Source of the DNA: a virus
Strand: one strand, 5' to 3'
Virus record (IMG/VR): IMGVR_UViG_3300042516_004943
Location: 1 to 64,000 of that record
Length of the DNA: 64,000 bases
A program made the translations under genes and the position numbers. The notes under the pieces were generated by a model. It worked only from the letters and a program-made list of their open reading frames with translations. It searched no databases and had not been told where the DNA came from. Each line of letters begins with the position of its first letter. Within the stretch, counting starts at the first letter, position 1. Positions 2,004 to 13,718 of this stretch are shown here, piece by piece.

Positions 2004-2068
2004 GCATTGAGTGTCAACCACTTACGCCTGGCCCCCAGGCCTGGTTGTGTAAGTGCTTGTTAATCAAC
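2004..2068. repeat. Intermodule hairpin repeat, copy R1
   Basis: The 37-bp core (2019-2055) has outer arms CACTTAC and GTAAGTG and an inner stem GCCTGG/CCAGGC. It separates rIIB from the rIIA promoter. It is one of ten copies, all with the same core length. Confidence 0.9.
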
Positions 2069-2151
2069 TATTTATACAATTTTTTAATCCATATAAAAAG
2101 TGAGGGGTGAGGCCCACCACAAGCCCCACCCCTCTGTCGCACCACCGACGA

Positions 2152-3024
2152 CTACCGCTTCCGCATGAAGCGGCCCTTCGCATCCCTCACATTATGGTAG
2201 TTGCAGTTTTTATTCGTGCAACCAGAATCTTCGTAAATGTCCTCGTAGTCCTCATCATCGTAGTCCTCATCGTAGGAAGTGAACTCCGTGTTGAGAGGCT
2301 TGCGATAGACCTGTTCAAAGTCCTTGACAACCTCGTAGCGAGCAGTCCGCAACTTCTGGCAGTCACAATCTTTCGGAACAGAAACAACATCCGAAGGATT
2401 GATCTTGACGATCACAAGGCGAGAGTTGCCGCCACCGAAAGTGCTGGCATACTCATGGCTACCAGCATGGAATCCATAAGAACAACCAACATCAGCATCG
2501 TCGCAGACTGCGTTGCGAGGCATTTCCAAGACCTCACCAACACCATTGTAGAACTTGCCGCTATGGTGATCCATGTAGTCCTCGCGCACACTCTTGTAGG
2601 CCAAGAAGTCGCCATCCTCGCAGATCGGAAGATGCTTGTGTTCAAGGAACGTATAAAGCTCCGACACAGCGCGACGAGAAGGATTCTCCATGAGTTTTTC
2701 AAGGAACCTTGCAAGCGGTTGGAACGGCAAGCCTTCGTCCATGAAGTCGAAGATGCGATCAACGACATAGTTGTGGACAGGTTCGCCATTGTAGTAGATT
2801 ACACCATCGGTAATCTCCACACCGCCGACATTATCGGCGTTGAACTTGCGGGTGATAGACTCCGACACATCGAACAGGGAGTCGAGCGTGTCAATGTCTC
2901 CAGTAGCGAGGCAAGTAATAGCCTCGGTGAAAGACGGATGATTACAAGTCATCGTCTTGGGAACTCCATCAATAACTGCGGTGATGGACTCGTCGGTTTT
3001 GATTAGTGCGTTTAGTGCTTTCAT
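2152..3024 (-). CDS. rIIB: rIIB-like protein
   Basis: This 290-residue protein shows the conserved rIIB block DGDFLAYKSV (138-147), followed by MDHHSGKF and CSYGFHAGS (181-189). It ends in an acidic stretch and a Cys/His tail (CTNKNCNYH). rIIB acts with rIIA at the inner membrane in T4-like phages. It is the first of the two rII genes in the direction of transcription and has its own promoter 8 bases before the ATG. The opposite-strand 299-codon frame is a shadow of this gene. Confidence 0.88.
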   Translation of the reverse strand: MKALNALIKTDESITAVIDGVPKTMTCNHPSFTEAITCLATGDIDTLDSLFDVSESITRKFNADNVGGVEITDGVIYYNGEPVHNYVVDRIFDFMDEGLPFQPLARFLEKLMENPSRRAVSELYTFLEHKHLPICEDGDFLAYKSVREDYMDHHSGKFYNGVGEVLEMPRNAVCDDADVGCSYGFHAGSHEYASTFGGGNSRLVIVKINPSDVVSVPKDCDCQKLRTARYEVVKDFEQVYRKPLNTEFTSYDEDYDDEDYEDIYEDSGCTNKNCNYHNVRDAKGRFMRKR

Positions 3025-3032
3025 CGTTTATT

Positions 3033-3061
3033 AGATTACAGAGTTTTGAGGTTTGGGTCAA
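3033..3061 (-). promoter_or_regulatory. Leaderless-type promoter of rIIB
   Basis: The -35 box TTGACC (3056-3061), a 17-base spacer and the -10 box TAATCT (3033-3038) end 8 bases before the ATG at 3024. The transcript should begin at or next to the start codon. Confidence 0.75.
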
Positions 3062-3065
3062 GCGA

Positions 3066-3287
3066 TTATTTTCTTTTGCAACCAGTAACACAGCGAATAA
3101 TTTTATTGTTAACAAAAGTAGTGTCGCGCAGCACTTTCATGTATTTACTGAAAATTTGCTTGCGGTTAAGTCCAGCGTCAATCATTAAATCCCAAAGTTG
3201 ACGATGCATACCACTTCCGTATTGGGAAACAGCAAAGTGCAAATCTTCATAGGCTCCAGCTGAATAGGTGTCTTTCTGTAGTTTCAT
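3066..3287 (-). CDS. Hypothetical protein, 73 aa
   Basis: This is a small basic protein with no recognised domain. The frame is supported by its own strong promoter just before the ATG and by the snug fit between repeat R2 and the rIIB promoter (TAA at 3066, -35 of rIIB at 3061). The C-terminus is lysine/arginine rich. Confidence 0.7.
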   Translation of the reverse strand: MKLQKDTYSAGAYEDLHFAVSQYGSGMHRQLWDLMIDAGLNRKQIFSKYMKVLRDTTFVNNKIIRCVTGCKRK

Positions 3288-3293
3288 ACATTC

Positions 3294-3322
3294 AAGGTAT
3301 CGCGTTTTGCGATAGGTGTCAA
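3294..3322 (-). promoter_or_regulatory. Leaderless-type promoter of the 73-aa gene
   Basis: The boxes are TTGACA (3317-3322), a 17-base spacer and TACCTT (3294-3299), ending 6 bases before the ATG at 3287. There is no room for a Shine-Dalgarno sequence. Confidence 0.8.
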
Positions 3323-3330
3323 GTGTTTTT

Positions 3331-3402
3331 GTAAGTGCTTGAGCGCCAAATACTTACGCCTGGCGCCCAGCCCTGTATTTGTAACTGCCTGATTTCCAAA
3401 TA
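3331..3402. repeat. Intermodule hairpin repeat, copy R2 (degenerate)
   Basis: The core 3351-3387 has arms TACTTAC and GTAACTG and an inner GCCTGG/CCAG. The arms have drifted, but the 37-bp core length is kept. It lies between the tRNA(CAU) and the promoter at 3294-3322. Confidence 0.8.
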
Positions 3403-3406
3403 GATA

Positions 3407-3479
3407 TGGGGCGGGTCGGATTCGAACCGACAACCAATCGATTATGAGCCGACTGCTCTGACCATTGAGCTACCACCCC
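3407..3479 (-). tRNA. tRNA with CAU anticodon (Met elongator or Ile)
   Basis: The cloverleaf is complete: acceptor GGGGTGG/CCGCCCC, D-arm GCTC/GAGC, anticodon loop CTCATAA, T-arm GTCGG-TTCGAAT-CCGAC and discriminator A. G1-C72 pairing rules out the initiator. CCA is not encoded. A CAU anticodon could be elongator Met or the lysidine-modified Ile2 tRNA; the sequence alone does not decide. The 5' end overlaps the stop codon of the small peptide gene upstream. Confidence 0.95.
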
Positions 3480-3565
3480 GTAAAAAATGTTATTACTCCA
3501 TAAATAGCAAACGTCCAGACACAAATAGTGATAGGGAGAGCGACAAATAGCACGATAGGTTTCAT
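3470..3565 (-). CDS. Small membrane peptide, 31 aa
   Basis: The frame starts with an ATG that overlaps the stop of the upstream gene (ATGA), a usual sign of coupled translation. It encodes a single hydrophobic helix (residues about 3-28, rich in V, L, I, F and W) with a Lys at position 2. The stop TAG is supplied by bases 8-10 of the tRNA, so the gene overlaps the tRNA by ten bases. Function unknown. Confidence 0.6.
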   Translation of the reverse strand: MKPIVLFVALPITICVWTFAIYGVITFFTGW

Positions 3566-3807
3566 AGCTCAAATTGAAGTTGCCGACTACCAGTTCCTTC
3601 GACTTCGTAATCTGCCACCCATTTGTCCTCGCCCTCAAACGATCTGGGAGACAATAACAATATAGCGTGTTCTTCGTAATCGTCATCCCAATACTTGCCA
3701 GTCCCATCTTCATGGTTGATAATTTCCCATGTTTCGGAATCATATTTTACATAATCACCAATGGTGAGCATCTCGCCATCATAATCAGCAGGAATGATTG
3801 TTTTCAT
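3562..3807 (-). CDS. Hypothetical acidic protein, 81 aa
   Basis: This acidic protein (many D/E and W residues) has no recognised domain. It is the middle gene of a tightly overlapping trio: its ATG overlaps the stop of the metallopeptidase gene (3804-3807), and its stop overlaps the next ATG (3562-3565). Confidence 0.8.
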   Translation of the reverse strand: MKTIIPADYDGEMLTIGDYVKYDSETWEIINHEDGTGKYWDDDYEEHAILLLSPRSFEGEDKWVADYEVEGTGSRQLQFEL

Positions 3808-4130
3808 AGTTTGTATATTGACGTTGGATTAGGATAAACTTTTTTGCGCTGAATGTAAAGCCCCCAAAATTTTAATGCGCGATCTTCGACTTGACAAAAG
3901 AGTTTGCCGTGATCTAGCGTTCCTCCGTAGAAGTGACATACTTCATGCACAACGTAATAGATGACAAATTTTTCACCAAACTTAAAAGACCAGTCGGGAA
4001 TACTGAAGCGGCCTTGCGTAGTGTAGGCGCGGCCACGCTTGTTTGAAGTAATCTCCGCTTTTGGTTTGATAGGCAATCCCAAAAATTTTGCGGTGAGGTT
4101 AGCGATTGCTTGGATTTCAGATAGTTTCAT
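3804..4130 (-). CDS. SprT-like / HExxH zinc metallopeptidase
   Basis: This 108-residue protein contains VVHEVCHF with the zinc-ligand pattern H62-E63-x-x-H66 and a further His in LDHG about eight residues later. The arrangement resembles small SprT/WLM-type metallopeptidases found in phages. It lacks room for the C-terminal zinc ribbon of full SprT proteins. It is the first gene of a three-gene overlapping unit with a ~100-base leader. The fold assignment rests on the HExxH motif and size only; the substrate is unknown. Confidence 0.65.
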   Translation of the reverse strand: MKLSEIQAIANLTAKFLGLPIKPKAEITSNKRGRAYTTQGRFSIPDWSFKFGEKFVIYYVVHEVCHFYGGTLDHGKLFCQVEDRALKFWGLYIQRKKVYPNPTSIYKL

Positions 4131-4292
4131 GTGGTGTTGTGGGCGCCCTATTCGCTCAATACGTCTTCGGGCTACGATTTCGTCTGATGCTTACTCGTTT
4201 GTAAGACCATCGCGTTGAGATTCCTCGGATATGCTTACAATAGGACTTTTTGCGTGTGCGGTCAAGATATTTTTTACATTAAAATGCAAAGT
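4131..4292 (-). promoter_or_regulatory. Promoter and long leader of the metallopeptidase operon
   Basis: A minus-strand TTGACC, a 17-base spacer and TATTGT lie near 4233-4262. Unlike the other left-arm promoters this one leaves a ~100-base untranslated leader. The leader contains two copies of GTAAGCAT and a possible 12-codon frame. I see no convincing structured RNA in it. Confidence 0.4.
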
Positions 4293-4366
4293 GTTGAGCG
4301 TCAACCACTTACACCGGGCCACCAGGCCGGGCTACGTAACTGCTTGATTTAGAATGACTTATGTAA
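4293..4366. repeat. Intermodule hairpin repeat, copy R3
   Basis: The core 4306-4342 has arms CACTTAC and GTAACTG (one mismatch) around a G+C-rich centre that keeps the CCAGGC block. It is followed on the right by a terminator of the DUF932 gene. Confidence 0.85.
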
Positions 4367-4376
4367 ACTAATTTTT

Positions 4377-4414
4377 ATAAAAAAAAGAGCTTGACAGGTT
4401 GCCCTGCCAAGCCC
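4377..4414 (-). terminator. Rho-independent terminator of the DUF932 gene
   Basis: On the minus strand a 10-bp stem GCTTGGCAGG/CCTGTCAAGC (one G-U pair) closes a GCAA loop at 4389-4412 and is followed by a run of eight T. It lies just after the stop codon at 4432. Confidence 0.85.
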
Positions 4415-4431
4415 CTTGTGCGTCTCAGAGT

Positions 4432-5220
4432 TTACGCGGTCACCAGTTCAGCCTCCGCGACTTCCTCCTCACGGGAGAAGGCAACTCCCGCGAGAGGATC
4501 GAGCAACCCGTGCAGTGCGTCACTGCGTTTCGGAAGTGCCAGCACGTTGCCGCGCATGACGTTGGTGAACGAGTTGTGCAAGCCCCAGAGGTTGCGTTCC
4601 AGTTTCCACTCGCCGTGTTCGGGAGTGTGCCACTGGTCGAGAACGTCCGCCAGTGCAGTCTTGCTCACTGCGCCGCAGCGATAAGCGCGAGCAAGGATGT
4701 CGTGCGCTTCGTTATCCTTGAGCGTGTAGGCCTGATAGGCCTCGATGCGCTTGGCATTGTTGCCCCAAGTGTTGAGCAACTTACCGAAAGCACCCGCAAG
4801 GATGTTCGGAAGGTCACGCAAGATGAACTTGGTGTGCCGACGAGCGATCTTGATCTCGTTGTGAAAAGCGAGATTGTCGCAGACGAACGGAGCCGAGCCA
4901 GCGTTGATGCCAGCGGGGAACGACTTGTCGTGCGAGTTACGCAAGCCGATGACAGTCCCGATATTCTGCTCTTGCGAGAAGTTCGGGATGCCCGTCACTT
5001 GGAAGAGTCCGAAGTAACGGAGACCACCACGAGCGAGGGCGTGAGCCTCTTGCGTGATAGCGAGGCCAGCGTTGCCGACGATTTCACGCAGACGCTCGAC
5101 GAGTGTGAAGTGAGGGATCGGCATCCACGATTCCGTGGGCAACGGAGTCGGGGTCTTCTGGACTTCGGTGGATTCGACGGCGTGACCGCCACAGTGTAGT
5201 GTGAGTTTGAGGTTTTTCAT
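4432..5220 (-). CDS. DUF932-family phage/plasmid protein
   Basis: The 262-residue product contains GLRNSHDKSFPAGI followed by FVCDNLAF and a HNEIKIARRHT segment. This is the typical core of the DUF932 (phage/plasmid-like TIGR03299) family, which is common in phages and plasmids and of unknown biochemical role. The ATG at 5220 was chosen because it follows a promoter by 8 bases; an upstream in-frame start at 5319 would run through that promoter and repeat flank. A terminator follows, so this is a single-gene unit. Confidence 0.8.
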   Translation of the reverse strand: MKNLKLTLHCGGHAVESTEVQKTPTPLPTESWMPIPHFTLVERLREIVGNAGLAITQEAHALARGGLRYFGLFQVTGIPNFSQEQNIGTVIGLRNSHDKSFPAGINAGSAPFVCDNLAFHNEIKIARRHTKFILRDLPNILAGAFGKLLNTWGNNAKRIEAYQAYTLKDNEAHDILARAYRCGAVSKTALADVLDQWHTPEHGEWKLERNLWGLHNSFTNVMRGNVLALPKRSDALHGLLDPLAGVAFSREEEVAEAELVTA

Positions 5221-5228
5221 ACTCAAGC

Positions 5229-5257
5229 AGTATAGGGAGATTTGAACCGCACGCAAA
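5229..5257 (-). promoter_or_regulatory. Leaderless-type promoter of the DUF932 gene
   Basis: The boxes are TTTGCG (5252-5257), a 17-base spacer and TATACT (5229-5234), ending 8 bases before the ATG at 5220. A/T-rich tracts lie just upstream. Confidence 0.65.
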
Positions 5258-5296
5258 GACTTTTTTTCGATTTTTTTTATAAATCTTTTTTTAAAG

Positions 5297-5406
5297 TTGG
5301 CACAGTTCCTGAACTGCAATTTGTATAAGTCCTTGATTATCAGGCACTTACACCCGGCGGCCAGGCTGGCCCTCGTAACACTATGATTACGAGGGCCTTA
5401 CGTTTA
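5297..5406. repeat. Intermodule repeat, copy R4 (extended form)
   Basis: The core 5345-5381 has CACTTAC on the left. The right arm is rebuilt into a perfect 11-bp inverted repeat GGCCCTCGTAA/TTACGAGGGCC (5368-5378 and 5387-5397). The extended left part begins with TTGGCACAG at 5297, exactly 48 bp before the core, as in R7, R8 and R10. The TAA of the 56-aa gene lies at its right end. Confidence 0.85.
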
Positions 5407-5574
5407 AGCGAGGAATTTAGCGACTTGCTTTTGACTTGCCCTCTTCAAGAGATCGGTTCGTCCAACAAGAGATCCGCGCTTCTTGCGAGACAGCAAAGAG
5501 ACAACGCCAATCTGTTTACGGAAGCGAACAGCTTCTCCTTTGTAGTTATAGATAGCACCTTCGATTAGTTTCAT
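5404..5574 (-). CDS. Small basic protein, 56 aa
   Basis: The frame starts after a strong ribosome-binding site (AAGGAGG, 8 bases before ATG), one of the few in the left arm. This fits its place as second gene of a unit, 15 bases after the 74-aa gene. The product is lysine/arginine rich and begins with a YNYKGEAVRF stretch suggestive of a small beta-barrel. No firm family call. Confidence 0.7.
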   Translation of the reverse strand: MKLIEGAIYNYKGEAVRFRKQIGVVSLLSRKKRGSLVGRTDLLKRASQKQVAKFLA

Positions 5575-5589
5575 TATATTTCCTCCTTT

Positions 5590-5814
5590 CTATTCTTCGT
5601 CATCCCCAAACATGGCGTCCCACTCTTGGGGAGTGATGCCAGTTTTGATAAACTCGCGCTGACCAGCGTCGAGCATTGGGAAAGCGTTTTGAATGAGTTC
5701 CCCTGTTTGCCAGAGGATTTCGCGCTTGGCGAATTCTTCTGGAGAGATAGGAATCTCCATCTGATGGATGCGGCCAGTGAAGGGGGAACGACGAGTGATG
5801 ATGGTTTTGTTCAT
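5590..5814 (-). CDS. Conserved phage hypothetical protein, 74 aa
   Basis: The sequence pattern RRSPFTG near the N-terminus, then GELIQNAFP and REFIKTGITPQEWDAMFG, is a familiar small-protein family of large phages and has no known function. It begins from its own leaderless-type promoter and is followed by the 56-aa gene in the same unit. Confidence 0.8.
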   Translation of the reverse strand: MNKTIITRRSPFTGRIHQMEIPISPEEFAKREILWQTGELIQNAFPMLDAGQREFIKTGITPQEWDAMFGDDEE

Positions 5815-5820
5815 ATTGTT

Positions 5821-5849
5821 AATGTATGGGATTTTGATTATTTTTGCAA
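5821..5849 (-). promoter_or_regulatory. Leaderless-type promoter of the 74-aa gene
   Basis: The boxes are TTGCAA (5844-5849), a 17-base spacer and TACATT (5821-5826), ending 6 bases before the ATG at 5814. The upstream gene ends at 5853. Confidence 0.7.
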
Positions 5850-5852
5850 GGA

Positions 5853-6578
5853 TTATTTTTCAAAAACATACGACCAGTAGCGCGAATCCTGCTTGTCTTG
5901 AATCGCGTCCCAATAGAGGCAACGCGCAATGTAGCAGGGAACATCGTATGCACGGCACATAGCAATCCAATGGGCTTCGATGTTATCGTAATGTTTTTCG
6001 TCTTTGGTCTGGTCGAGGCCGTAGGCTTGGAACATATGAGTGTCCATACAAACAACCTCGCACTTGTCTGGATGCATCATCTCCAACGAGAACGAAACTT
6101 TTGCTTTGCCAAGACCAAGCACTTCGCTAACAAGCTCGTCACGATGACTGCGCCAATCAGCAGGAGCGTGAGAGTATTTCGGAATATCCTTCCAGAACTT
6201 TTGCTGGAACTGCCACACAAACTTTGTGCGGTTGTTGTGCAAGCCAACGCCGCTATGCTTGAGTTTGTTGAGAAGAACTTGCTGGTCATGCCACCAATCG
6301 AGAGACTTAATTGCATTGTAGCCATTGACGTTGGACTTCCAACTTGTATGGACTGACATAAAAGCAAACAGCCAGCGCAACATGGATTCTTGCGTAGTGT
6401 CTGGCGCAATCGAATTCCAGTAGTTGGTGTATGACACAATGCGCGAACGATCAAGTGAGTCAAAGAATTTTTCGACGCGAACATATTGAGGGTTGCGCGT
6501 AGGCTTGAGTTCCAATTCGGGTTGCACCAAAGCGTCAGATGAGCAACGCATGGGTAGAGGTAGTTGTGTGGTGATCAT
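5853..6578 (-). CDS. HhH-GPD-like DNA glycosylase-fold protein
   Basis: The 241-residue protein carries a helix-hairpin-helix-like LVSEVLGLGKAKVSFSL (149-165), followed 13 residues later by VVCMDTHM (175-182). The spacing matches the HhH and catalytic-Asp segments (VDTHV type) of the endonuclease III/OGG superfamily, so D179 would be the catalytic residue. No 4Fe-4S cysteine cluster is present. A base-excision role is inference, since only these two motifs support it. It starts from its own promoter, 6 bases before the ATG. Confidence 0.55.
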   Translation of the reverse strand: MITTQLPLPMRCSSDALVQPELELKPTRNPQYVRVEKFFDSLDRSRIVSYTNYWNSIAPDTTQESMLRWLFAFMSVHTSWKSNVNGYNAIKSLDWWHDQQVLLNKLKHSGVGLHNNRTKFVWQFQQKFWKDIPKYSHAPADWRSHRDELVSEVLGLGKAKVSFSLEMMHPDKCEVVCMDTHMFQAYGLDQTKDEKHYDNIEAHWIAMCRAYDVPCYIARCLYWDAIQDKQDSRYWSYVFEK

Positions 6579-6584
6579 GCTGTA

Positions 6585-6613
6585 AGAATAGCTGTATTTG
6601 AGTTTTGAGTCAA
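6585..6613 (-). promoter_or_regulatory. Leaderless-type promoter of the HhH-GPD-like gene
   Basis: The boxes are TTGACT (6608-6613), a 17-base spacer and TATTCT (6585-6590), ending 6 bases before the ATG at 6578. This is one of the clearest examples of the left-arm promoter class. Confidence 0.85.
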
Positions 6614-6638
6614 CTGGATTTTTATCATTTTATAAATC

Positions 6639-6700
6639 GTTGGTATTCAACCACTTACGCCCGGCGGCCAGGCGGCCTGCTGTAAGTGCTTGATAATGAG
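6639..6700. repeat. Intermodule hairpin repeat, copy R5
   Basis: The core 6652-6688 has perfect CACTTAC/GTAAGTG arms around a centre with GGCC AGGC GGCC. Its right flank directly abuts the 3' end of tRNA-Cys. Confidence 0.9.
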
Positions 6701-6770
6701 CACCTTGCTGGATTCGAACCAGCGTATAAGAGTTTTGCAGACTCTGGCCTTACCACTTGGCGAAAGGTGC
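6699..6770 (-). tRNA. tRNA-Cys (GCA)
   Basis: The acceptor is GCACCTT/AAGGTGC, the anticodon stem AGAGT/ACTCT with loop CTGCAAA (anticodon GCA), and the T-arm GCTGG-TTCGAAT-CCAGC. The discriminator is U73, the cysteine identity base. CCA is not encoded. Confidence 0.95.
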
Positions 6771-6780
6771 GAAATGTTCG

Positions 6781-7335
6781 GCTACCTCTTCTGTGCCGTC
6801 TTCTCCTTGCGGATCGGGCAGATTTGGTTAACGCGCACCGAACGCGGGTCATGGTCACCATCCCCCTTATTACAGTCAGCTATCTGCTTCTCATCATCAG
6901 TGGGTTCTGACTATCTTGGTAGCGAACCAAGAACGTGTGTTTAGATGGCCTTAGACTATAACGGCTTCAGCTTACGTTGCACAACTATCTTTCCGGACTA
7001 TGTTGAGCAAACCATCAAATTTTTTCAAAGAAAGTGGTGACAGGGAGGCCAGAACTCCCTGCCTATTATTCCGTGCCTTCTGGCGGCACCGACATCGAAT
7101 TACCTTGCGGTAACTAGCCCACAAGTTGAACGGAGAAATATCCGCCAGAGCTTGGGAGAATTGTTCCCTGTCTTACAAGTATCTGTATCTGGAATCTTTA
7201 CATGACGCCGCAGCGAACACAACCAGTTAGTTTCATGCATAGATGCAGGGAAATTTTTTATAGCCTCGGAGGGTTTTGTGTAGGACGACAGACCCTTACT
7301 TCTGTCCATCTTTTATTCCGATACTTCGTTCGGGC
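6781..7335 (-). ncRNA. Candidate large structured non-coding RNA next to tRNA-Cys
   Basis: About 560 bases have no credible gene but hold many perfect local hairpins. They are 6915-6931 (CTTGGT/ACCAAG), 7041-7061 (CAGGGAG/CTCCCTG), 7073-7089 (GTGCC/GGCAC), 7100-7113 (TTACC/GGTAA), 7131-7144 (CGGA/TCCG), 7154-7168, 7237-7246 (GCAT/ATGC), 7287-7306 (GACAGA/TCTGTC) and 7318-7333 (CCGA/TCGG). Giant ornate phage RNAs such as GOLLD and ROOL have this size and often lie beside phage tRNAs. A group I intron is the main alternative. A 69-codon minus-strand frame (7100-7309) lies inside, but it runs through five of the hairpins. The strand is assigned from the neighbouring tRNA only. Confidence 0.55.
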
Positions 7336-7357
7336 TTTGTTTCAAATTGTAAAAGAA

Positions 7358-7621: not shown

Positions 7622-7628
7622 GGTTTTA

Positions 7629-8114: not shown

Positions 8115-8144
8115 GTGTTTTTCTCTCATGTCGATGCCTTAAAC

Positions 8145-8337
8145 ATATTAGCAAAATGTGTCGAAATTTTCTTAATAAATCGACAAATAGCGAAATATCA
8201 AATTGGAAAATAGCGAAATAGGAAATACAGAAATAGGAAATAGTTATCAGTCAAATAGTAGAATAAATAGATAATAATCAATGATCATTGAATAAAAATG
8301 AATTATTATTATTGTATTGTCTGCTATGCTTGTTATT
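8145..8337. other. A+T-rich non-coding tract with short direct repeats and a palindrome
   Basis: This gene-free stretch holds recurring GAAATA/AAATAG units (8195-8245) and a perfect 14-bp palindrome TCAATGATCATTGA. The palindrome is flanked by inverted AATAATAAT/ATTATTATT runs (8268-8320). It could be an origin or a regulatory site; nothing in the sequence decides this. Confidence 0.4.
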
Positions 8338-8414
8338 GTAAGTCTTTCATTATCAACCACTTACGCCTGGGGGCCAGGCCCGGTTCTGTAAGTGACTGAT
8401 TATCAAGGCTTTAC
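8338..8414. repeat. Intermodule hairpin repeat, copy R6
   Basis: The core 8358-8394 has perfect CACTTAC/GTAAGTG arms, inner stem GCCTGG/CCAGGC and flanks TTATCA and TGATTATCA. The 37-bp core is identical in sequence to that of R9. Confidence 0.92.
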
Positions 8415-8429
8415 ATATGTTAACATTTT

Positions 8430-8462: not shown

Positions 8463-8487
8463 TCAAACTTTCAAACAAGCGTTTGAT

Positions 8488-8982
8488 TTAGTCCTCTGTC
8501 TCCTTCACCCAAGTAGGTGCGCCGCCATCGAGTTCGCGGTAGATGTAAGTCGGAGCTTTGTCATAGAGCATGAAGTTCTCACGCTCAAACGTGCTGTATT
8601 CGTCTTGTGCTGCGATGCTCGCGTGTTCGCGGAACACTTTGCCGGATTCTTTCTTGTGATTGCGAGGCTTTGCTTTGTATTGGTCAGCAACCTCTGTGTC
8701 TTGCCACTTTGTCATATTTTCGTATGTCAAAGCGCGGATCATATTTTCTTCCGTTGAGAGGAAGTAGGCAAACGTGTCGCCAATGTGGTGAAGGTAAGAA
8801 TCGCCAAGTTCACCGAGTTGCATTTCAGAGTCGCCACTTGTGCGCTCTATGTTTGCATTTGAACCAGCCGCGCCCCAGTTAAAGAAGCGGTTGTAAGTGC
8901 GTTCGATTTGTTCGCGTGTTCCGTCGAGGCCAACAGCGATGCCGTTGCCGTATAGACTGATTAGTATTTTTGCTTGTTCCAT
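8488..8982 (-). CDS. Hypothetical protein, 164 aa
   Basis: This soluble, acidic protein has no recognised family. The N-terminus reads ILISLYGNGIAVGLDG. It is a single-gene unit with a promoter 9 bases before the ATG, a hairpin after the stop and then repeat R6. Confidence 0.8.
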   Translation of the reverse strand: MEQAKILISLYGNGIAVGLDGTREQIERTYNRFFNWGAAGSNANIERTSGDSEMQLGELGDSYLHHIGDTFAYFLSTEENMIRALTYENMTKWQDTEVADQYKAKPRNHKKESGKVFREHASIAAQDEYSTFERENFMLYDKAPTYIYRELDGGAPTWVKETED

Positions 8983-8991
8983 AGTGTTGAA

Positions 8992-9020
8992 AGTTTAGAT
9001 GGTGAGTGTGTGCGCGTCAA
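8992..9020 (-). promoter_or_regulatory. Leaderless-type promoter of the 164-aa gene
   Basis: The boxes are TTGACG (9015-9020), a 17-base spacer and TAAACT (8992-8997), ending 9 bases before the ATG at 8982. Confidence 0.75.
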
Positions 9021-9024
9021 GCGA

Positions 9025-9159
9025 TTAATTTCCGCGAGCGTCGATTTCGCGCCAGTAATTTTTTTCCTGCTCGTCGAGATACGCCTCGTATTCAGAGGCA
9101 AACTCGTCGCTTTGGATTTGCGTGTTGAAGTCGTCGTTGATGATGGAGTTCGCTTGCAT
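9025..9159 (-). CDS. Small acidic protein, 44 aa (paralogue of 12916-13125)
   Basis: The ATG at 9159 follows its promoter by 6 bases; a longer frame from 9249 would run through the promoter. The N-terminus (INDDFNTQIQSDEFASE) closely matches that of the 69-aa protein at 12916-13125 (ITDDFNTQPQSDEMASE), so the two are paralogues with different C-termini. Function unknown. Confidence 0.75.
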   Translation of the reverse strand: MQANSIINDDFNTQIQSDEFASEYEAYLDEQEKNYWREIDARGN

Positions 9160-9165
9160 GGGTAA

Positions 9166-9193
9166 AGAATAGCACAGCCATAGCACCGCACAA
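9166..9193 (-). promoter_or_regulatory. Leaderless-type promoter of the 44-aa gene
   Basis: The boxes are TTGTGC (9188-9193), a 16-base spacer and TATTCT (9166-9171), ending 6 bases before the ATG. An A/T tract and extended repeat R7 lie upstream. Confidence 0.7.
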
Positions 9194-9242
9194 GGATTTT
9201 TTGCGAATAAAAATATATTTTTTTTCTGCTTGACATGATGAG

Positions 9243-9348
9243 TTGGCATGGTTTCTGCGCTGTGTATTGCATAAGTCCTTGATTTTCAGCCACTTACGCC
9301 CGGCGGCCAGGCCCGGCTCTGTAAGTGCCTTATTGTCAGCGCTTTACG
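9243..9348. repeat. Intermodule repeat, copy R7 (extended form)
   Basis: The core 9291-9327 has perfect arms. The extended left part starts with TTGGCATGG at 9243, 48 bp before the core, followed by ATAAGTCCTTGATTTTCAG. The right flank GCGCTTTAC ends just before the TGA at 9349. Confidence 0.92.
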
Positions 9349-9507
9349 TCATCGCAGTTTGTCGCGTGTGTCAAGACATTTTTGCCACCCCATAAAGAAA
9401 AGTTTTTGGAGTGTCATAACGCCAGCACGCTCCCACCATAGAGCCAAGCTGAAAAAGTATTCAGACAAGCGGAACAAGTTTTTTCGTGCGATCAGATTGA
9501 ATGTCAT
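9349..9507 (-). CDS. Hypothetical protein, 52 aa
   Basis: This basic peptide has an aromatic/hydrophobic stretch (LSEYFFSLALWWERAG) that may associate with the membrane. It begins 4 bases after the stop of the 21-aa peptide gene and is the last gene of its unit before R7. A short or peripheral protein of unknown role. Confidence 0.6.
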   Translation of the reverse strand: MTFNLIARKNLFRLSEYFFSLALWWERAGVMTLQKLFFMGWQKCLDTRDKLR

Positions 9508-9511
9508 AATT

Positions 9512-9577
9512 TTATTTTTTATAGATTGAAACAATAAAGGCCAACAATGAGCCAAAGGCGAGAAGAATTATTTCCAT
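9512..9577 (-). CDS. Very small membrane peptide, 21 aa
   Basis: The peptide is a single hydrophobic helix (IILLAFGSLLAFIVSI) with a lysine tail. It sits 15 bases after the Gp88-like gene and 4 bases before the next ATG, with no overlapping alternative. Too short for homology; support comes from operon spacing. Confidence 0.5.
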   Translation of the reverse strand: MEIILLAFGSLLAFIVSIYKK

Positions 9578-9592
9578 GATGGTGCATTGTAT

Positions 9593-10270
9593 TCAGATTT
9601 GCACCACGAAGCCAGACGAATCGCGGAGAGCTTTGCCCTTTGCTTTGAGTCCGACAATGACGTTTTGAGGATCAAGAAAACGCAAGTCGCTTTCGTCTCC
9701 ATTTATGACACGTTTGCCAAGGTAAGTCTCCGGCAATTCATTAAAGACAACCGCCACGTTGCCACCAGCGGAAAGAACAGCGTGGACGCGATGCTGATTG
9801 TCCTCTTTGCGTGAGAAAGTAAGATGGTAATTCTTCGGCAGTTCGCCATTGAGAAATTGCATCATGCGATTTAGGTTTGGCGTGTAGTCGTAAAACTGAA
9901 TTGACGGAAAGCGCGCCATGTCGATGAGCATATGCCAAGGAAGGTCAGACAAGACGTTAGGCCGACAAGCAACAGGCATATTATTTTTTGCGCTCCATTT
10001 TTCGGCATTGTGCAATTCTTTATTCATCTGCGCGAGAAACGTGTTGCGCTCGTCGATAAAGTAACGCGACTTGGCAAGGCGAGCATCTTGCACGTTTGAG
10101 AAAATGCCCATGCCGGAAGTGTCAAGACAAGCTGCCTCGCAACCGGACGAACGATGCGGACAGAATTGTTTGCCAGACTTACCAGCGGGAGAAAGTGACA
10201 AGCCGTAAGTGCGCCAACCGAGCTTTTCGCCCTTTTTGATTTTGGTGTTGTTAGTGGATAGGAGTTTCAT
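9593..10270 (-). CDS. Gp88-like phage protein
   Basis: This 225-residue protein has an N-terminal Cys-rich block (C37-P-H ... GC44-EAAC48), then NVQDARLAKSRYF, an RPNVLSDLPW segment and FPSIQFYDYT. The order matches the Gp88 domain family (named after a mycobacteriophage gene) found in many phages and of unknown activity. The clustered Cys suggest metal binding (inference). A TAGAAT-like -10 lies before the ATG, and the preceding gene ends 28 bases upstream. Confidence 0.75.
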   Translation of the reverse strand: MKLLSTNNTKIKKGEKLGWRTYGLSLSPAGKSGKQFCPHRSSGCEAACLDTSGMGIFSNVQDARLAKSRYFIDERNTFLAQMNKELHNAEKWSAKNNMPVACRPNVLSDLPWHMLIDMARFPSIQFYDYTPNLNRMMQFLNGELPKNYHLTFSRKEDNQHRVHAVLSAGGNVAVVFNELPETYLGKRVINGDESDLRFLDPQNVIVGLKAKGKALRDSSGFVVQI

Positions 10271-10297
10271 AGCGTGGTGATTCTATGAGGGTTTGCC

Positions 10298-10537
10298 TTA
10301 CTTGGCAAGAGCTTTTTTCACCCTTGCAAGGTCGCGCTTGCTGTGCGTGTAGAGTTTCGCGTCGATGCTTTCCAGATTGGAGAGCAAACGATAGGCTGCG
10401 ATTTTTTCGCGTGCGTTACGGCGAGCGAAAGTTCCGACGATGCTGTTGCGGTCGCGCAACGTGTTGGAGATGTCTTTTTGAAGTGCAACGCGCGCTTGGA
10501 TGAGGGCTTCGATGAGTTCGAGTTTGGTGATGTTCAT
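10298..10537 (-). CDS. Hypothetical helical protein, 79 aa
   Basis: This Arg/Lys/Ala-rich, mostly helical protein (begins MNITKLELIEALIQAR) may form a coiled coil. A TTGCAA box lies at promoter distance, but the -10 (GAAAAT) is poor. It forms one group with the Gp88-like gene downstream. Family not recognised. Confidence 0.75.
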   Translation of the reverse strand: MNITKLELIEALIQARVALQKDISNTLRDRNSIVGTFARRNAREKIAAYRLLSNLESIDAKLYTHSKRDLARVKKALAK

Positions 10538-10575
10538 ATTTTTATTTTCTCTGATTTTGAGTCCGGTTGCAAGAA

Positions 10576-10731
10576 TTATTCTGCGAGGAGAGCGTTTATT
10601 TTTTCGCGTGTCTTTCTCATCGCATGGAGTAAAACAGTCGTTTGATCGTCCAGCATGGGGTCGATCAAATCGTTTGCGATCTGTTCAAGTTTTTCGGTTA
10701 GGGCTTGGAGTTGGATTTCTTTCTCTGTCAT
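10576..10731 (-). CDS. Small helical protein, 51 aa
   Basis: This acidic heptad-like peptide (EIQLQALTEKLEQIANDLI) is likely a short coiled coil. The ATG at 10731 follows its promoter by 6 bases. It is the first gene of the module after repeat R8. Confidence 0.7.
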   Translation of the reverse strand: MTEKEIQLQALTEKLEQIANDLIDPMLDDQTTVLLHAMRKTREKINALLAE

Positions 10732-10737
10732 GCTTAC

Positions 10738-10765
10738 AAGATACCACAGCCGCGCAAAAATGCAA
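10738..10765 (-). promoter_or_regulatory. Leaderless-type promoter of the 51-aa gene
   Basis: The boxes are TTGCAT (10760-10765), a 16-base spacer GCGCGGCTGTGG-like, and TATCTT (10738-10743), then GTAAGC-ATG. The same GCGCGGCTGTGG spacer and GTAAGC leader recur at 14770. Confidence 0.75.
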
Positions 10766-10814
10766 GGGATTTTTTACGATTAAAAAAATATTTTTTTTCT
10801 ACTTGACAGCGCAC

Positions 10815-10919
10815 TTGGCACACTTCTTGAACAGTGTTTTCCGTAAGTTGTTCATTTTCAGGCACTTACACCCGGCGGCCAGGCGGCCTGCCGTAAGTGG
10901 TTGATTATCAACGCTTTAC
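10815..10919. repeat. Intermodule repeat, copy R8 (extended form)
   Basis: The core 10863-10899 has perfect arms. TTGGCACAC starts at 10815, 48 bp before the core. The right flank TTGATTATCAACGCTTTAC contains the TGA stop of the 47-aa gene (10908-10910). Confidence 0.93.
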
Positions 10920-11051
10920 GATATAGTCGCTGATTTGGCCGTTTGCTGCGATGCGCTCAAGCCATGTCGAGGTGTTGTAGTGCCACAGGCTCATGGCGAG
11001 CAGTGAAACAGGCGTTTGAATTCCGAGCAGTTGTTTTATCCAGTTTGTCAT
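10908..11051 (-). CDS. Hypothetical protein, 47 aa
   Basis: Its ATG overlaps the stop of the upstream 65-aa gene (ATGA at 11048-11051). The peptide contains WLERIAANGQISDYIVKR and a moderately hydrophobic N-terminal half. Its stop codon lies within repeat R8, so the repeat starts inside the gene. Confidence 0.65.
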   Translation of the reverse strand: MTNWIKQLLGIQTPVSLLAMSLWHYNTSTWLERIAANGQISDYIVKR

Positions 11052-11245
11052 AGTTCTTCAGCGTATTCGTTTTTGTTTTCTGTGCCAAGCATTTTTTCCA
11101 TGCGCTCTTTCAGTAGCGTATAGACAAGGTGCGCGTCATGCACAGCGTCAACACAGTCTTTCCGCATTCCTTCCATGAGAAAGTCTTTTGCGTAGAAGCG
11201 GACACCATTTGATTCAAGGGCTTTTTGTATGTTGGGCGTGATCAT
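11048..11245 (-). CDS. Hypothetical protein, 65 aa
   Basis: This small helical acidic protein lies in a chain of overlapping genes: its ATG overlaps the stop of the 64-aa membrane protein and its stop overlaps the next ATG. Unknown family. Confidence 0.75.
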   Translation of the reverse strand: MITPNIQKALESNGVRFYAKDFLMEGMRKDCVDAVHDAHLVYTLLKERMEKMLGTENKNEYAEEL

Positions 11246-11436
11246 GAGTTAGAATCATCGAGGAACATTCCATCAAACACAAGAGGTTTTTCCAGTTCAT
11301 CAAAAATGTTTTTGCTTTTCTGATGTGTGCGCTCATGCAACTGCATACAGGCAGAGCAGAGCATGGTTGCAACGAGAACAAACGTGAGAAGTGCCAAGGA
11401 ATAGGCCACGCTGTCGAATGTGATGTATTTTTTCAT
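11242..11436 (-). CDS. Small single-pass membrane protein, 64 aa
   Basis: The ATG at 11436 gives a short N-terminus, one membrane helix (SLALLTFVLVATMLCSACM, about residues 12-30) and an acidic tail. The longer frame from 11721 overlaps two other genes and is not credible. Spanin or holin-like roles are possible but unsupported. Confidence 0.65.
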   Translation of the reverse strand: MKKYITFDSVAYSLALLTFVLVATMLCSACMQLHERTHQKSKNIFDELEKPLVFDGMFLDDSNS

Positions 11437-11440
11437 GAGA

Positions 11441-11527
11441 TTATTTTCGGGAGTCGGCCCAGAGGATGAGGAAGGCGCAAGCAGATGGAAAGATGCCCAG
11501 CCAAAAGAGTGGAACCCAGATTGACAT
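11441..11527 (-). CDS. Very small membrane peptide, 28 aa
   Basis: The peptide is one Trp-rich hydrophobic helix (WVPLFWLGIFPSACAFLIL) ending in DSRK. It lies 3 bases after the 71-aa gene and 4 bases before the next ATG, so it fills an otherwise empty 90-base gap in the operon. Confidence 0.55.
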   Translation of the reverse strand: MSIWVPLFWLGIFPSACAFLILWADSRK

Positions 11528-11530
11528 AGT

Positions 11531-11746
11531 TTATTTATATGATCCAACAGGGATGTTGGGAGTTGAAACGTAAACCGCTTCCAGAAAGCGATCCTCATCG
11601 AAACGCGGATTTTGTTCGGCAAAGTATTTCGCAAAGTCCAAAGCGAGGACTTCAACAGCTTCGTATTCGCCAATCGGCGCGTGTTGTTTTTCAGCGAGAC
11701 GCTTGCCCAAGATTTTTGCAATGGCCTCGAATTGTTTTTTCGTCAT
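11531..11746 (-). CDS. Hypothetical protein, 71 aa
   Basis: This soluble helical protein starts MTKKQFEAIAKILGKRLAE and is the first gene of a five-gene overlapping unit that ends at R8. A TTGACC box (11776-11781) lies at the usual distance, but the -10 (CACAAT) is weak. That -35 contains the TGA of the gene upstream. Confidence 0.75.
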   Translation of the reverse strand: MTKKQFEAIAKILGKRLAEKQHAPIGEYEAVEVLALDFAKYFAEQNPRFDEDRFLEAVYVSTPNIPVGSYK

Positions 11747-11777
11747 GGTGTTATTGTGGTTTGTTTTGTGGTTAGGG

Positions 11778-11978
11778 TCAAGAGATTTTTTTCGGCTCCC
11801 GATAGCAGAGTCCGTGGCGGTTGTAACGTCCTTCGGCGCGGTTCATCCGTTCGATGTCGCGCTCGTAAGCTTCGGGGTTGCGCTGATAGGCAGGATCCCA
11901 AGGATCAATGCCGAGTGGGAGGTCGAGGGTTTGCAGACGCTCTTCGTCGCGCCAGCTTGTGGTGTATCCGTTTTTCAT
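11778..11978 (-). CDS. Hypothetical protein, 66 aa
   Basis: This charged protein has an Asp/Pro/Tyr/Arg-rich middle (DPWDPAYQRNPEAYERDIER). No family recognised. It has a consensus promoter 6 bases before the ATG, and its TGA lies inside the next -35 box. Confidence 0.75.
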   Translation of the reverse strand: MKNGYTTSWRDEERLQTLDLPLGIDPWDPAYQRNPEAYERDIERMNRAEGRYNRHGLCYREPKKIS

Positions 11979-11984
11979 ACTTTT

Positions 11985-12012
11985 AATCTATCAGAAAAAT
12001 CCGTTTTGTCAA
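11985..12012 (-). promoter_or_regulatory. Leaderless-type promoter of the 66-aa gene
   Basis: The boxes are TTGACA (12007-12012), a 16-base spacer and TAGATT (11985-11990), ending 6 bases before the ATG at 11978. The -35 contains the TGA stop (12009-12011) of the upstream gene. Confidence 0.88.
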
Positions 12013-12188
12013 GCGACTTTTTTCACGCTGACTTCCCAGTAGGGAAAGAACAGATGCATATAGCGAGCAGTCACTTGCACGCCATCCTTACGCCAGATGG
12101 TGCGCTTATTGCTCTGCGCAACGTAGTGACCGAAGTCTTTCATGGCGTTGAGGACGATTTCCTTTTTGTGGGTTCCTTTTGTTATCAT
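12009..12188 (-). CDS. Hypothetical protein, 59 aa
   Basis: The ATG at 12188 follows its promoter by 6 bases; the longer frame from 12245 would run through it. The product has a basic start (MITKGTHKKEIVLNAMKDF) and an aromatic C-terminus. It is the first gene of the module after R9. Confidence 0.72.
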   Translation of the reverse strand: MITKGTHKKEIVLNAMKDFGHYVAQSNKRTIWRKDGVQVTARYMHLFFPYWEVSVKKVA

Positions 12189-12194
12189 GCTTAC

Positions 12195-12222
12195 ACTATA
12201 CCACAGAACGCGCAAAAAGCAA
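12195..12222 (-). promoter_or_regulatory. Leaderless-type promoter of the 59-aa gene
   Basis: The boxes are TTGCTT (12217-12222), a 16-base spacer and TATAGT (12195-12200), followed by GTAAGC and the ATG. Confidence 0.8.
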
Positions 12223-12275
12223 GGATTTTTTTTGCGATTGTGCAATTTTTTTTATTATTTTTTTGCTTGACATTT

Positions 12276-12352
12276 GTAAACTGTTGAATATCAGGCACTT
12301 ACGCCTGGGGGCCAGGCCCGGTTCTGTAAGTGCTTGATTTGCAACGCTTTAC
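12276..12352. repeat. Intermodule hairpin repeat, copy R9
   Basis: The core 12296-12332 has perfect arms and is identical to the R6 core. The left extension is shortened (no TTGGCA block). The right end CTTTAC contains the TAA stop of the 51-aa basic protein. Confidence 0.93.
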
Positions 12353-12504
12353 GTATCTTGCCAACCACGAAAAAACTTTGCTTTGCGCGCGAATTTTTTC
12401 TTGACACGCATGGCAAACGAGGGCTTGCAAGTTGTCTTGCGAACGCTGCGCTCGATTGCGCGAGCAAGCGGTCGCGTGTCGATTGTCATAATGATTCTGC
12501 TCAT
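12349..12504 (-). CDS. Small basic protein, 51 aa
   Basis: This strongly basic peptide (many R and K, for example MRVKKKFARKAKFFRGW) may bind nucleic acid or ribosomes (inference from charge only). It starts 1 base after the stop of the 76-aa gene, and its TAA lies in repeat R9. Confidence 0.65.
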   Translation of the reverse strand: MSRIIMTIDTRPLARAIERSVRKTTCKPSFAMRVKKKFARKAKFFRGWQDT

Positions 12505-12505
12505 G

Positions 12506-12736
12506 TTAGTTGACCCCAAAAGAGAATTGCTGATTTTTTACTGCGTTCAACTCTACCGCGAGCGTAGTCGAAACGCCACACAAGAGATTGAGTTTGTGCT
12601 CGTGCATGGTGATCGTGCGCAAAGCCTTCTCCAACATATCTTGAAGATGGTGGATGTGCGCCTCCTGCGCTTGGATTGTTTTCTCATGCTTGATGAGAGT
12701 TTCCAGCGATTTGATGATGCCGTCTTGTTGTGTCAT
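12506..12736 (-). CDS. Coiled-coil protein, 76 aa
   Basis: The ATG at 12736 lies 4 bases after the preceding stop. The middle (SLETLIKHEKTIQAQEAHIHHLQDMLEKAL) has clear heptad spacing and is a likely coiled coil. Family not recognised. Confidence 0.72.
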   Translation of the reverse strand: MTQQDGIIKSLETLIKHEKTIQAQEAHIHHLQDMLEKALRTITMHEHKLNLLCGVSTTLAVELNAVKNQQFSFGVN

Positions 12737-12740
12737 AGTA

Positions 12741-12911
12741 TTAGTGTTTGGGTTTGGGTTTGGGTTCAGGACGAGCGCACGGATCGTTGCGGTGACGCTC
12801 CTCGGCATAGCCGAAAAGAATGTCAAATGCTTGTTCCGGCGTGATCCAATCGTCCTCTGGGAGGTCGAAGCGCCATTCAGTAGGCCATGCGCCTGTGGTG
12901 TTTTCTGTCAT
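12741..12911 (-). CDS. Hypothetical protein, 56 aa, PK-rich tail
   Basis: This small acidic protein ends in a PEPKPKPKH tail encoded by a tandem hexamer (CCCAAA on the minus strand). The ATG at 12911 is 4 bases after the upstream stop. Unknown function. Confidence 0.7.
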   Translation of the reverse strand: MTENTTGAWPTEWRFDLPEDDWITPEQAFDILFGYAEERHRNDPCARPEPKPKPKH

Positions 12912-12915
12912 AAAA

Positions 12916-13125
12916 TTAATTGTCCCAACCTTCCTGTTCGCCCCAGTCCGCGAGATCGTCCATGCCCGACCCGTCACCGGGCCATTGACCCTCATACCCA
13001 TCATAGGGTTGCGGCTCCTGCTCGACGGCAGGCTCGGCAGCAAACGTGCCGCGCATAGCCTCATGTTCAGAGGCCATCTCGTCGGATTGCGGTTGTGTGT
13101 TGAAGTCGTCAGTGATGTTGTTCAT
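12916..13125 (-). CDS. Small acidic protein, 69 aa (paralogue of 9025-9159)
   Basis: The ATG at 13125 follows its promoter by 6 bases. The N-terminal 20 residues match the 44-aa protein at 9025-9159. The rest is Glu/Asp/Gly/Trp rich (YEGQWPGDGSGMDDLADW). It is the first gene of a four-gene unit ending at R9. Confidence 0.75.
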   Translation of the reverse strand: MNNITDDFNTQPQSDEMASEHEAMRGTFAAEPAVEQEPQPYDGYEGQWPGDGSGMDDLADWGEQEGWDN

Positions 13126-13131
13126 GGTGTT

Positions 13132-13160
13132 AGGATATGGTGAGTTGAGGATTATTGCAA
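13132..13160 (-). promoter_or_regulatory. Leaderless-type promoter of the 69-aa gene
   Basis: The boxes are TTGCAA (13155-13160), a 17-base spacer and TATCCT (13132-13137), ending 6 bases before the ATG. Confidence 0.7.
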
Positions 13161-13168
13161 GCGTTTTT

Positions 13169-13519
13169 TTATGCGGCCAAAGCGGGACGCACACGGAACA
13201 CAAGCTCCAGCTTGCCAGCATCGGGGCGAGTCTCGCCAGCGAGGAAAGCGGCGAGCATCTTGCTGTCGAAGTTGAAGCGAGAGAGGGGGTGAGAGTTAGC
13301 CCAACGCAAGCCATCGGGCAAGCCAAGGTCGATGAGTTGCTCGACCTCTGCATCAGAGGGGCAGGAGTAAGGCGACCAGCCAAGGGTTGCGATAGTCTTG
13401 CCAGTCTCGACGCTGACGAGTTCGTGCCAGAGTTTCGTGCAGTCGCCATCGAAGTCCTCCGAGATGATGAGCGTGCAGAGGGTTCCGTTGACGTTGAATG
13501 TGGTGTCTTTATCTTTCAT
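13169..13519 (-). CDS. Hypothetical protein, 116 aa
   Basis: The ATG at 13519 follows its promoter by 6 bases. The start (MKDKDTTFNVNGTLCTLIIS) and the later segment SDAEVEQLIDLGLPDG do not match a family I know. It is the first gene after repeat R10. Confidence 0.75.
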   Translation of the reverse strand: MKDKDTTFNVNGTLCTLIISEDFDGDCTKLWHELVSVETGKTIATLGWSPYSCPSDAEVEQLIDLGLPDGLRWANSHPLSRFNFDSKMLAAFLAGETRPDAGKLELVFRVRPALAA

Positions 13520-13525
13520 GCTTAT

Positions 13526-13553
13526 AGCATAACACAGCGCACCGAAAAAGCAA
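13526..13553 (-). promoter_or_regulatory. Leaderless-type promoter of the 116-aa gene
   Basis: The boxes are TTGCTT (13548-13553), a 16-base spacer and TATGCT (13526-13531), then ATAAGC and the ATG. Confidence 0.78.
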
Positions 13554-13612
13554 GAGATTTTTTTGCAATTGTGAAAGTTTTTTTTATATCTTTTTTCGCT
13601 TGACAGGCTGAG

Positions 13613-13718
13613 TTGGCACACTTCTTGAACAGCTGTTTGCATAAGTCGTTGAATATGAGGCACTTACGCCCGGCGGCCAGGCGGCCCGCCGTAAGTGCTT
13701 GATTTAGAACAACTTACA
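13613..13718. repeat. Intermodule repeat, copy R10 (extended form)
   Basis: The core 13661-13697 has perfect arms. TTGGCACAC starts at 13613, 48 bp before the core. The right flank overlaps the TAA of the 33-aa peptide (13714-13716). It is the last copy; none is seen beyond 14 kb. Confidence 0.93.

What the first reader, a model, noticed from the sequence alone, without database searches (positions are those of the whole stretch)
2004..13718. Ten-copy hairpin repeat with an invariant 37-bp core marks module boundaries of the left arm
Cores at 2019, 3351, 4306, 5345, 6652, 8358, 9291, 10863, 12296 and 13661 all run from CACTTAC to GTAAGTG (or close variants) and are all exactly 37 bp. The 23-base centre is variable but keeps RCCYGG and CCAGGC blocks that can form an inner stem. 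Flanking TTGATTATCA units add alternative pairings: GTAAG on the left pairs with CTTAC, and the right arm pairs with CTTTAC. The copies occur only between transcription units of the minus-strand left arm and never in the late region. Phage analogues are mycobacteriophage L5 stoperators and cluster K SAS/ESAS elements, but sequence and structure differ. A phage regulator site, an RNA-processing hairpin or a recombination boundary are all possible.
Basis: seen in the sequence. Interest (0 to 1): 0.85.

Follow-up and report, generated by a model that had tools for sequence, protein, structure and literature searches.

The report
Repeated DNA joint between phage modules
A group of uncultured large phages carries the same roughly 80-bp DNA element at nearly every join between small early genes and the next promoter; it looks like a protein-binding control site that also marks where gene modules are swapped, and no cultured phage is known to have it.

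Summary
The ten copies are real, all exactly 37 bp, and confined to the left arm of a 73.8-kb virus fragment. The full element is larger, about 77 bp. Four 12-bp half-sites (GTAA-N4-TTGA and its reverse) form two imperfect palindromes around a GC-rich centre. A scan of 14 virus records (the window's own plus relatives) gave 134 copies; shuffled sequence gave none. In three long genomes that were read whole they lie in one 14-17 kb arm.

Each copy starts at the stop codon (or tRNA 3' end) of one unit and lies upstream of the next unit's promoter, usually a leaderless-type one. It is not an intrinsic terminator: no copy has a T-tract, and 23 of 111 have a separate terminator just upstream. RNA pairing is not supported. 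There are no compensatory changes, and adjacent inverted half-sites are almost never fully complementary (3 of 402 pairs), far below chance for the two pairs involving R2. The centre is lineage-specific and homogenised within a genome. Gene order breaks about twice as often at the element.

Best reading: a DNA control site at early-module boundaries, comparable to T4 PeSL cassettes in position and effect, but without the terminator and with new anatomy. The binding protein, the host and any activity are unknown.

The parts
1995..2079 (-). element copy 1 (R1-F1-core-R2-F2; core 2019-2055)
   Evidence: follows an intrinsic terminator (2102-2134)
3327..3411 (-). element copy 2 (core 3351-3387), directly after the tRNA-Met 3' end
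4282..4366 (-). element copy 3 (core 4306-4342), after an intrinsic terminator (4384-4417)
5321..5405 (-). element copy 4 (core 5345-5381), upstream of the DUF932 gene
6628..6712 (-). element copy 5 (core 6652-6688), directly after the tRNA-Cys 3' end
8334..8418 (-). element copy 6 (core 8358-8394)
9267..9351 (-). element copy 7 (core 9291-9327)
10839..10923 (-). element copy 8 (core 10863-10899); the upstream ORF ends VKR-stop, its TGA inside the R1 half-site
   Evidence: read
12272..12356 (-). element copy 9 (core 12296-12332)
13637..13721 (-). element copy 10 (core 13661-13697)
5297..5311 (+). TTGGCAC-N5-YTG motif (sigma54-like -24/-12 shape), antisense to the genes, fixed spacing from the element
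9243..9257 (+). same motif
10815..10829 (+). same motif
13613..13627 (+). same motif
13520..13553 (-). leaderless-type promoter TTGCTT-N16-TATGCT-N6-ATG downstream of copy 10
   Evidence: sequence; class statistics
12189..12222 (-). leaderless-type promoter TTGCTT-N16-TATAGT-N6-ATG downstream of copy 9
   Evidence: sequence
10732..10765 (-). leaderless-type promoter TTGCAT-N16-TATCTT-N6-ATG downstream of copy 8
   Evidence: sequence

Best explanation
The repeat is a double-stranded DNA control element that forms the standard joint between early transcription modules in a group of large uncultured tailed phages. Shown: each copy runs from the stop codon or tRNA 3' end of one unit, through two imperfectly palindromic units around a GC-rich centre, towards the next unit's promoter, usually of leaderless type; bases rather than pairings are conserved, with dyad symmetry; gene order breaks preferentially at it; the centre is homogenised within genomes. 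Inferred: a dimeric protein, probably phage-encoded, binds the two GTAA-N4-TTGA-N3-TCAA-N4-TTAC units. Bound protein would separate neighbouring units (blocking read-through) and/or set the activity of the promoter just downstream. Because the same cassette lies at every boundary, recombination between copies exchanges whole modules and makes copies within one genome alike.
For: 134 copies in 14 records against 0 in shuffled sequence, fixed geometry (centre value 21 or 13 in every copy, no other length), none outside the arm of three long genomes. No compensatory change in the three possible stems (z -0.1, -6.0, -4.9). Across 338 distinct palindromic units paired box positions covary no more than chance. 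The G-T versus A-C bias reverses between the left and right unit, a mirror pattern rather than a strand-specific one. Leaderless-type promoter within 220 bp downstream of 72 of 111 elements (random 23 +/- 4.4), and upstream stop codons end in register at element positions 2-3, 8 and 16. A separate intrinsic terminator lies upstream of 23 elements (expected 3.1); none has its own T-tract. Adjacent genes stay adjacent in 35% of comparisons across an element against 66% without one. Alignment ends fall inside elements 144 times against 62 +/- 7.5. The 15-bp centre is more alike within a genome (0.75) than at orthologous sites of other core lineages (0.64), while R1 follows the upstream gene.
Against: No binding protein was identified, and no sigma54-activator or other regulator could be tied to the element. 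A plain dimer site does not explain why adjacent half-sites must differ, why the centre is GC-rich, or why it is lineage-specific. About a third of elements had no promoter found by the simple pattern. The break-point statistics are not phylogenetically independent and rest on my own gene calls.
Confidence: 0.5

Rival explanations
1. RNA hairpin: the transcribed element folds and terminates, protects or processes the 3' end of each early transcript (or of a tRNA precursor).
For: It lies right after stop codons and tRNA 3' ends. The inner GC hairpin of the window copies is 97% pairable on the sense strand, with changes only to G-U or U-A. The centre keeps one polarity relative to transcription in most genomes of the large group and in G010.
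Against: No two-sided change in the window hairpin and no covariation over 91 distinct large-core copies. Sense and antisense folds are equally stable (p 0.10); the order of centre bases is barely more stable than shuffled, except in G008 and G010. No T-tract; canonical terminators sit separately upstream. Full stem complementarity is avoided.
Confidence: 0.17
2. Mostly a recombination patch: a repeated homology cassette maintained because it lets modules shuffle (or a non-coding repeat spread by recombination), with no protein of its own.
For: Doubled adjacency breaks and alignment ends at elements; centres homogenised per genome; gene-less tandem copies 170 bp apart in L113 and L119 and double-core arrays in L122 and L125.
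Against: Half-site bases are conserved across lineages whose centres differ completely, which homology alone does not require. The position is rigid relative to stop codon and promoter. Copies do not spread into the other 150 kb.
Confidence: 0.18
3. A site read as a folded single strand, comparable to integron attC sites: two paired boxes separated by a stretch that must stay unpaired, a variable GC tip, one site per gene cassette, acted on by an unknown recombinase or hairpin-binding protein.
For: Mismatch between adjacent half-sites is enforced within genomes: F1/R2 fully complementary 2 times against 17.2 expected, R2/F2 0 against 10.9, while the non-adjacent control R1/F2 is 5 against 4.8. 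Box-spacer-box layout, variable tip, cassette-like gene-plus-site units with the stop codon inside the site.
Against: No tyrosine recombinase (PF00589) in 13 records. Each module carries its own promoter, unlike typical integron cassettes. Mismatch may simply avoid unstable perfect palindromes or RNase III substrates. Not an attC by sequence.
Confidence: 0.1

Closest known systems
PeSL cassettes (promoter early stem-loop) of T4-type phages (Arbiol 2010, Comeau 2014; cited through PMC4503421 and PMC3950731, the originals were not held)
   Same: A repeated composite of a stem-loop-like element plus early promoter at boundaries of small accessory genes, with gene order breaking at the cassette.
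   Different: In PeSLs the stem-loop is a terminator. Here the element lacks a T-tract and coexists with separate terminators; it has sequence-conserved half-sites, enforced mismatches and a lineage-specific centre. Phages unrelated at the sequence level.
Left-arm motif of haloarchaeal myovirus HGTV-1 (TATA-like box plus inverted repeat before most left-hand ORFs; PMC3950731)
   Same: Inverted repeat plus promoter repeated before many ORFs of one genome arm, with shuffling suggested.
   Different: Archaeal virus and promoter; no described four-half-site layout or GC centre. Sequence not compared here.
Stoperators of cluster A mycobacteriophages (PMC6550527, PMC9283540)
   Same: Tens of dispersed sites in one genome, motif varying with lineage, a fixed orientation relative to transcription.
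   Different: Stoperators are 13-bp asymmetric sites of a monomeric repressor in temperate phages; here about 77 bp, dyad-symmetric, no integrase found, no repressor known.
Integron attC sites (compared from memory)
   Same: Two boxes separated by an enforced unpaired stretch, variable tip, one site per gene, stop codon within the site.
   Different: No IntI-type recombinase found, promoters present in each module, different box sequences.

Membership tests
T4-type PeSL cassette | Repeated composite of stem-loop-like element and early promoter between genes | tested here: met
   72 of 111 elements have a leaderless-type promoter within 220 bp downstream, random 23; that these genes are early is inferred
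T4-type PeSL cassette | The stem-loop is a transcription terminator | tested here: not met
   0 of 111 have a T-tract (expected 1.8); separate terminators upstream of 23
T4-type PeSL cassette | Gene modules exchanged at the cassette | tested here: met
   Adjacency 35% across against 66% without an element; alignment ends 144 against 62
Mycobacteriophage stoperator | Short asymmetric repressor-binding site | tested here: not met
   Element is about 77 bp and dyad-symmetric
Mycobacteriophage stoperator | Bound by the immunity repressor and blocks elongation | not testable with these tools
   No repressor candidate identified; needs binding and expression assays
Integron attC site | Substrate of an IntI tyrosine recombinase encoded nearby | tested here: not met
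   PF00589: 0 of 13 records
Integron attC site | Paired boxes separated by a stretch that stays unpaired | tested here: met
   Adjacent half-sites avoid full complementarity: 2 against 17.2 and 0 against 10.9; whether it folds is unknown
Intrinsic terminator | GC hairpin followed by a T-tract | tested here: not met
Bacterial REP sequence | Palindrome scattered in bacterial chromosomes | tested here: not met
   One match in 257 billion bases of bacterial and archaeal genomes, about chance level
Bacterial REP sequence | Linked to a RAYT (Y1) transposase | not tested
   No search for PF01797 was made
Known Rfam RNA family | Matches a covariance model | tested here: not met
   Only tRNAs and weak overlapping hits in window 1-16000

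The most novel reading that the evidence does not exclude
The element is a gene-cassette junction recognised with built-in mismatches (as a folded strand, or by an asymmetric pair of subunits), which turns one arm of these phage genomes into an integron-like array without an integron integrase: a new kind of site for exchanging self-promoted phage gene modules.
Probability: 0.12. Interest if true: 0.9.

Novelty: new variant of a known kind. Interest (0 to 1): 0.62.

Why it matters
It gives a concrete, testable joint by which a widespread group of uncultured large phages could keep many small accessory genes as independent, exchangeable expression modules. The enforced mismatch between inverted half-sites is an unusual evolutionary signature that standard palindrome or RNA-hairpin models do not predict. 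It suggests that PeSL-like modular arms arose independently in unrelated phages.

Tried and rejected
Intrinsic terminator (no T-tract). RNA structure by covariation and by fold energy. Site of a tyrosine recombinase (PF00589 absent). Sigma54 promoters driven by a phage activator: only weak AAA matches to PF00158; the Pfam scan of one relative shows a RuvB-like ATPase that could explain them. Host-derived repeat: not in bacterial genomes or plasmids. Known element of cultured phages: no credible match. First automatic gene calls in the arm were unreliable, because the arm differs in composition from the late genes, so transcription direction was set from the GP88 gene and conserved ORFs instead. 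The original PeSL papers were not in the library.

Full report
What is there. The ten cores are exact in place and length. The window is part of a 73,821-base virus record. On the minus strand, the coding strand of the left arm, each boundary reads: end of a gene; half-site R1 (GTAA-N4-TTGA); three bases; half-site F1 (TCAA-N4-TTAC); GC-rich centre; R2; three bases; F2; then the promoter region of the next unit. The TTGATTATCA units are the middles of the two R-F palindromes.

Distribution. A GP88 search in IMG/VR returned relatives on contigs up to 178 kb. A position-weight scan of the collected records found 134 copies in 14 records and none in shuffled sequence. In G001, G003 and G004, read whole in pieces, copies occupy one 14-17 kb arm and are absent elsewhere. 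G003 has matching ends, so it is probably complete. A generic half-site pattern hit 49 stretches in IMG/VR but only one in 257 billion bases of bacterial and archaeal genomes, about chance level by my estimate. Cultured phages and plasmids gave no credible match. By their matches to known phages these phages have no close cultured relative (terminase below 32% identity; portal 25%).

Anatomy across lineages. The half-site boxes persist while the centre changes: GCCYGG-NNN-CCAGGC type in the window, GGCGCGCCCCGCCGC in G001, G003 and others, GGGCCC-A/T-GGGCCC in G008, GGGCCCCCGGGCC in G010. Its length is fixed within a lineage (111 copies of one length, 23 of a length 8 bp shorter). In the window the extra 8 bp lie 5' of a 15-bp imperfect GC palindrome. 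Centres within one genome resemble each other (15-bp identity 0.75) more than centres at orthologous sites in other core lineages do (0.64, n = 14). The R1 half-site does the reverse: 0.58 within a genome, 0.81 at orthologous sites. This is concerted evolution of the centre, with R1 travelling with the upstream gene.

RNA or DNA. The stems show no compensatory changes: pair counts equal shuffled ones in the left unit and fall below them in the inner stem and the right unit. In 338 distinct palindromic units, box pairs covary no more than chance. In the ten window copies the inner GC hairpin is 97% pairable on the sense strand, but with no two-sided change, and one position of the right unit is unpaired in all ten. 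Sense and antisense fold energies do not differ (p 0.10) and the order of centre bases is hardly better than shuffled, except in G008 and G010. The degeneracy is mirror-symmetric: A-C exceeds G-T in the left unit and the reverse in the right unit. I read this as conservation of a duplex DNA site.

Enforced mismatch. Adjacent inverted half-sites share boxes but differ in the four bases between them. With partners shuffled inside each genome, full complementarity of F1 with R2 occurs 2 times against 17.2 expected and of R2 with F2 0 against 10.9, both below all 2000 shuffles. The non-adjacent control R1 with F2 is at expectation (5 against 4.8), and R1 with F1 is not significant (1 against 3.2). 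So perfect palindromes are avoided in two of the three adjacent pairs. Instability of perfect palindromes, RNase III avoidance, unlike protein subunits, or a folded-strand site could each cause this; the data do not choose.

Context. ORF stops end in register at element columns 2-3, 8 and 16 (28, 19 and 10 cases); for copy 10863 the upstream ORF ends V-K-R-stop inside R1. Two copies follow tRNA 3' ends directly. Leaderless-type promoters (TTGnnn, 16-18, TAnnnT, 3-8, ATG) number 166 in sense, 23 antisense and 16 in shuffled arms; 72 of 111 elements have one within 220 bp downstream against 23 expected. No element is followed by a T-tract and 23 have a separate intrinsic terminator upstream. A TTGGCAC-N5-YTG motif lies antisense, nearly always 9-10 bp beyond the element end, in the large-core group (52 of 53 antisense cases in one distance bin), and in sense in G008 and G010; it is nine times denser in arms than elsewhere. 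It resembles a sigma54 -24/-12 promoter, but no activator was found, so its role is open.

Module exchange. Where both genes are present elsewhere, neighbours remain neighbours in 66% of comparisons inside modules and 35% across an element. Ends of DNA alignments between arms fall inside elements 144 times against 62 +/- 7.5 and cluster at the two edges. This is what replacement of whole modules at a shared joint would give. Pairs of genomes are not independent, so these figures describe a tendency.

Comparison. In layout and effect it works like the PeSL cassettes of T4-type phages (named and described in PMC4503421 and PMC3950731, with an HGTV-1 parallel in the latter). It fails their terminator criterion, so I do not file it as a PeSL. 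It is not a stoperator by size and symmetry (PMC6550527), not an attC by recombinase, and not a known Rfam family.

Limits. Transcription has not been measured; 'early' is inferred from arm position and small accessory genes. The host is unknown; the single bacterial match is in a Verrucomicrobia bin but is at chance level. Records are metagenomic and may be fragments. Gene calls in the arms are mine.

Noticed in passing
window 5297-5311, 9243-9257, 10815-10829, 13613-13627 (+): TTGGCAC-N5-YTG motif of sigma54 -24/-12 shape at a rigid distance from the element, pointing against the genes here and with them in G008 and G010; its predicted start would fall at the element edge.
   Followed up: partly
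window 7787-7838, 10724-10774, 11971-12021, 13512-13562, 14327-14377, 14543-14593, 14763-14813 (-): A family of leaderless-type promoters whose -10 hexamer ends about six bases before ATG, repeated through the arm with or without the element.
   Followed up: partly
L024 / G008 372-8998: The central base of the otherwise palindromic GGGCCC-N-GGGCCC centre alternates A, T, A, T through nine successive copies (by my count about 0.4% by chance).
   Followed up: no
L113 12259-12645; L119 2699-3085: Three copies exactly 170 bp apart, apparently cassettes without a gene.
   Followed up: no
L122 8630-8732; L125 9092-9178: Tandem R-F-core-R-F-core arrays, two centres 45 bp apart sharing a palindromic unit.
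   Followed up: no
window 5368-5397: At the DUF932 boundary the left half-site is replaced by a separate inverted repeat (CCCTCGTAA/TTACGAGGG) that is kept in several relatives.
   Followed up: no
G003 (L066-L070): The relative encodes RuvB-like, DNA polymerase III alpha, DnaB, UvdE, Thy1, IMPDH and RNA ligase proteins, an unusual set for a phage with so few cultured relatives.
   Followed up: no
L095 346-386: Single bacterial match to the half-site pattern, in an uncultured Verrucomicrobia bin; a perfect hairpin, at chance level but a possible host hint.
   Followed up: no
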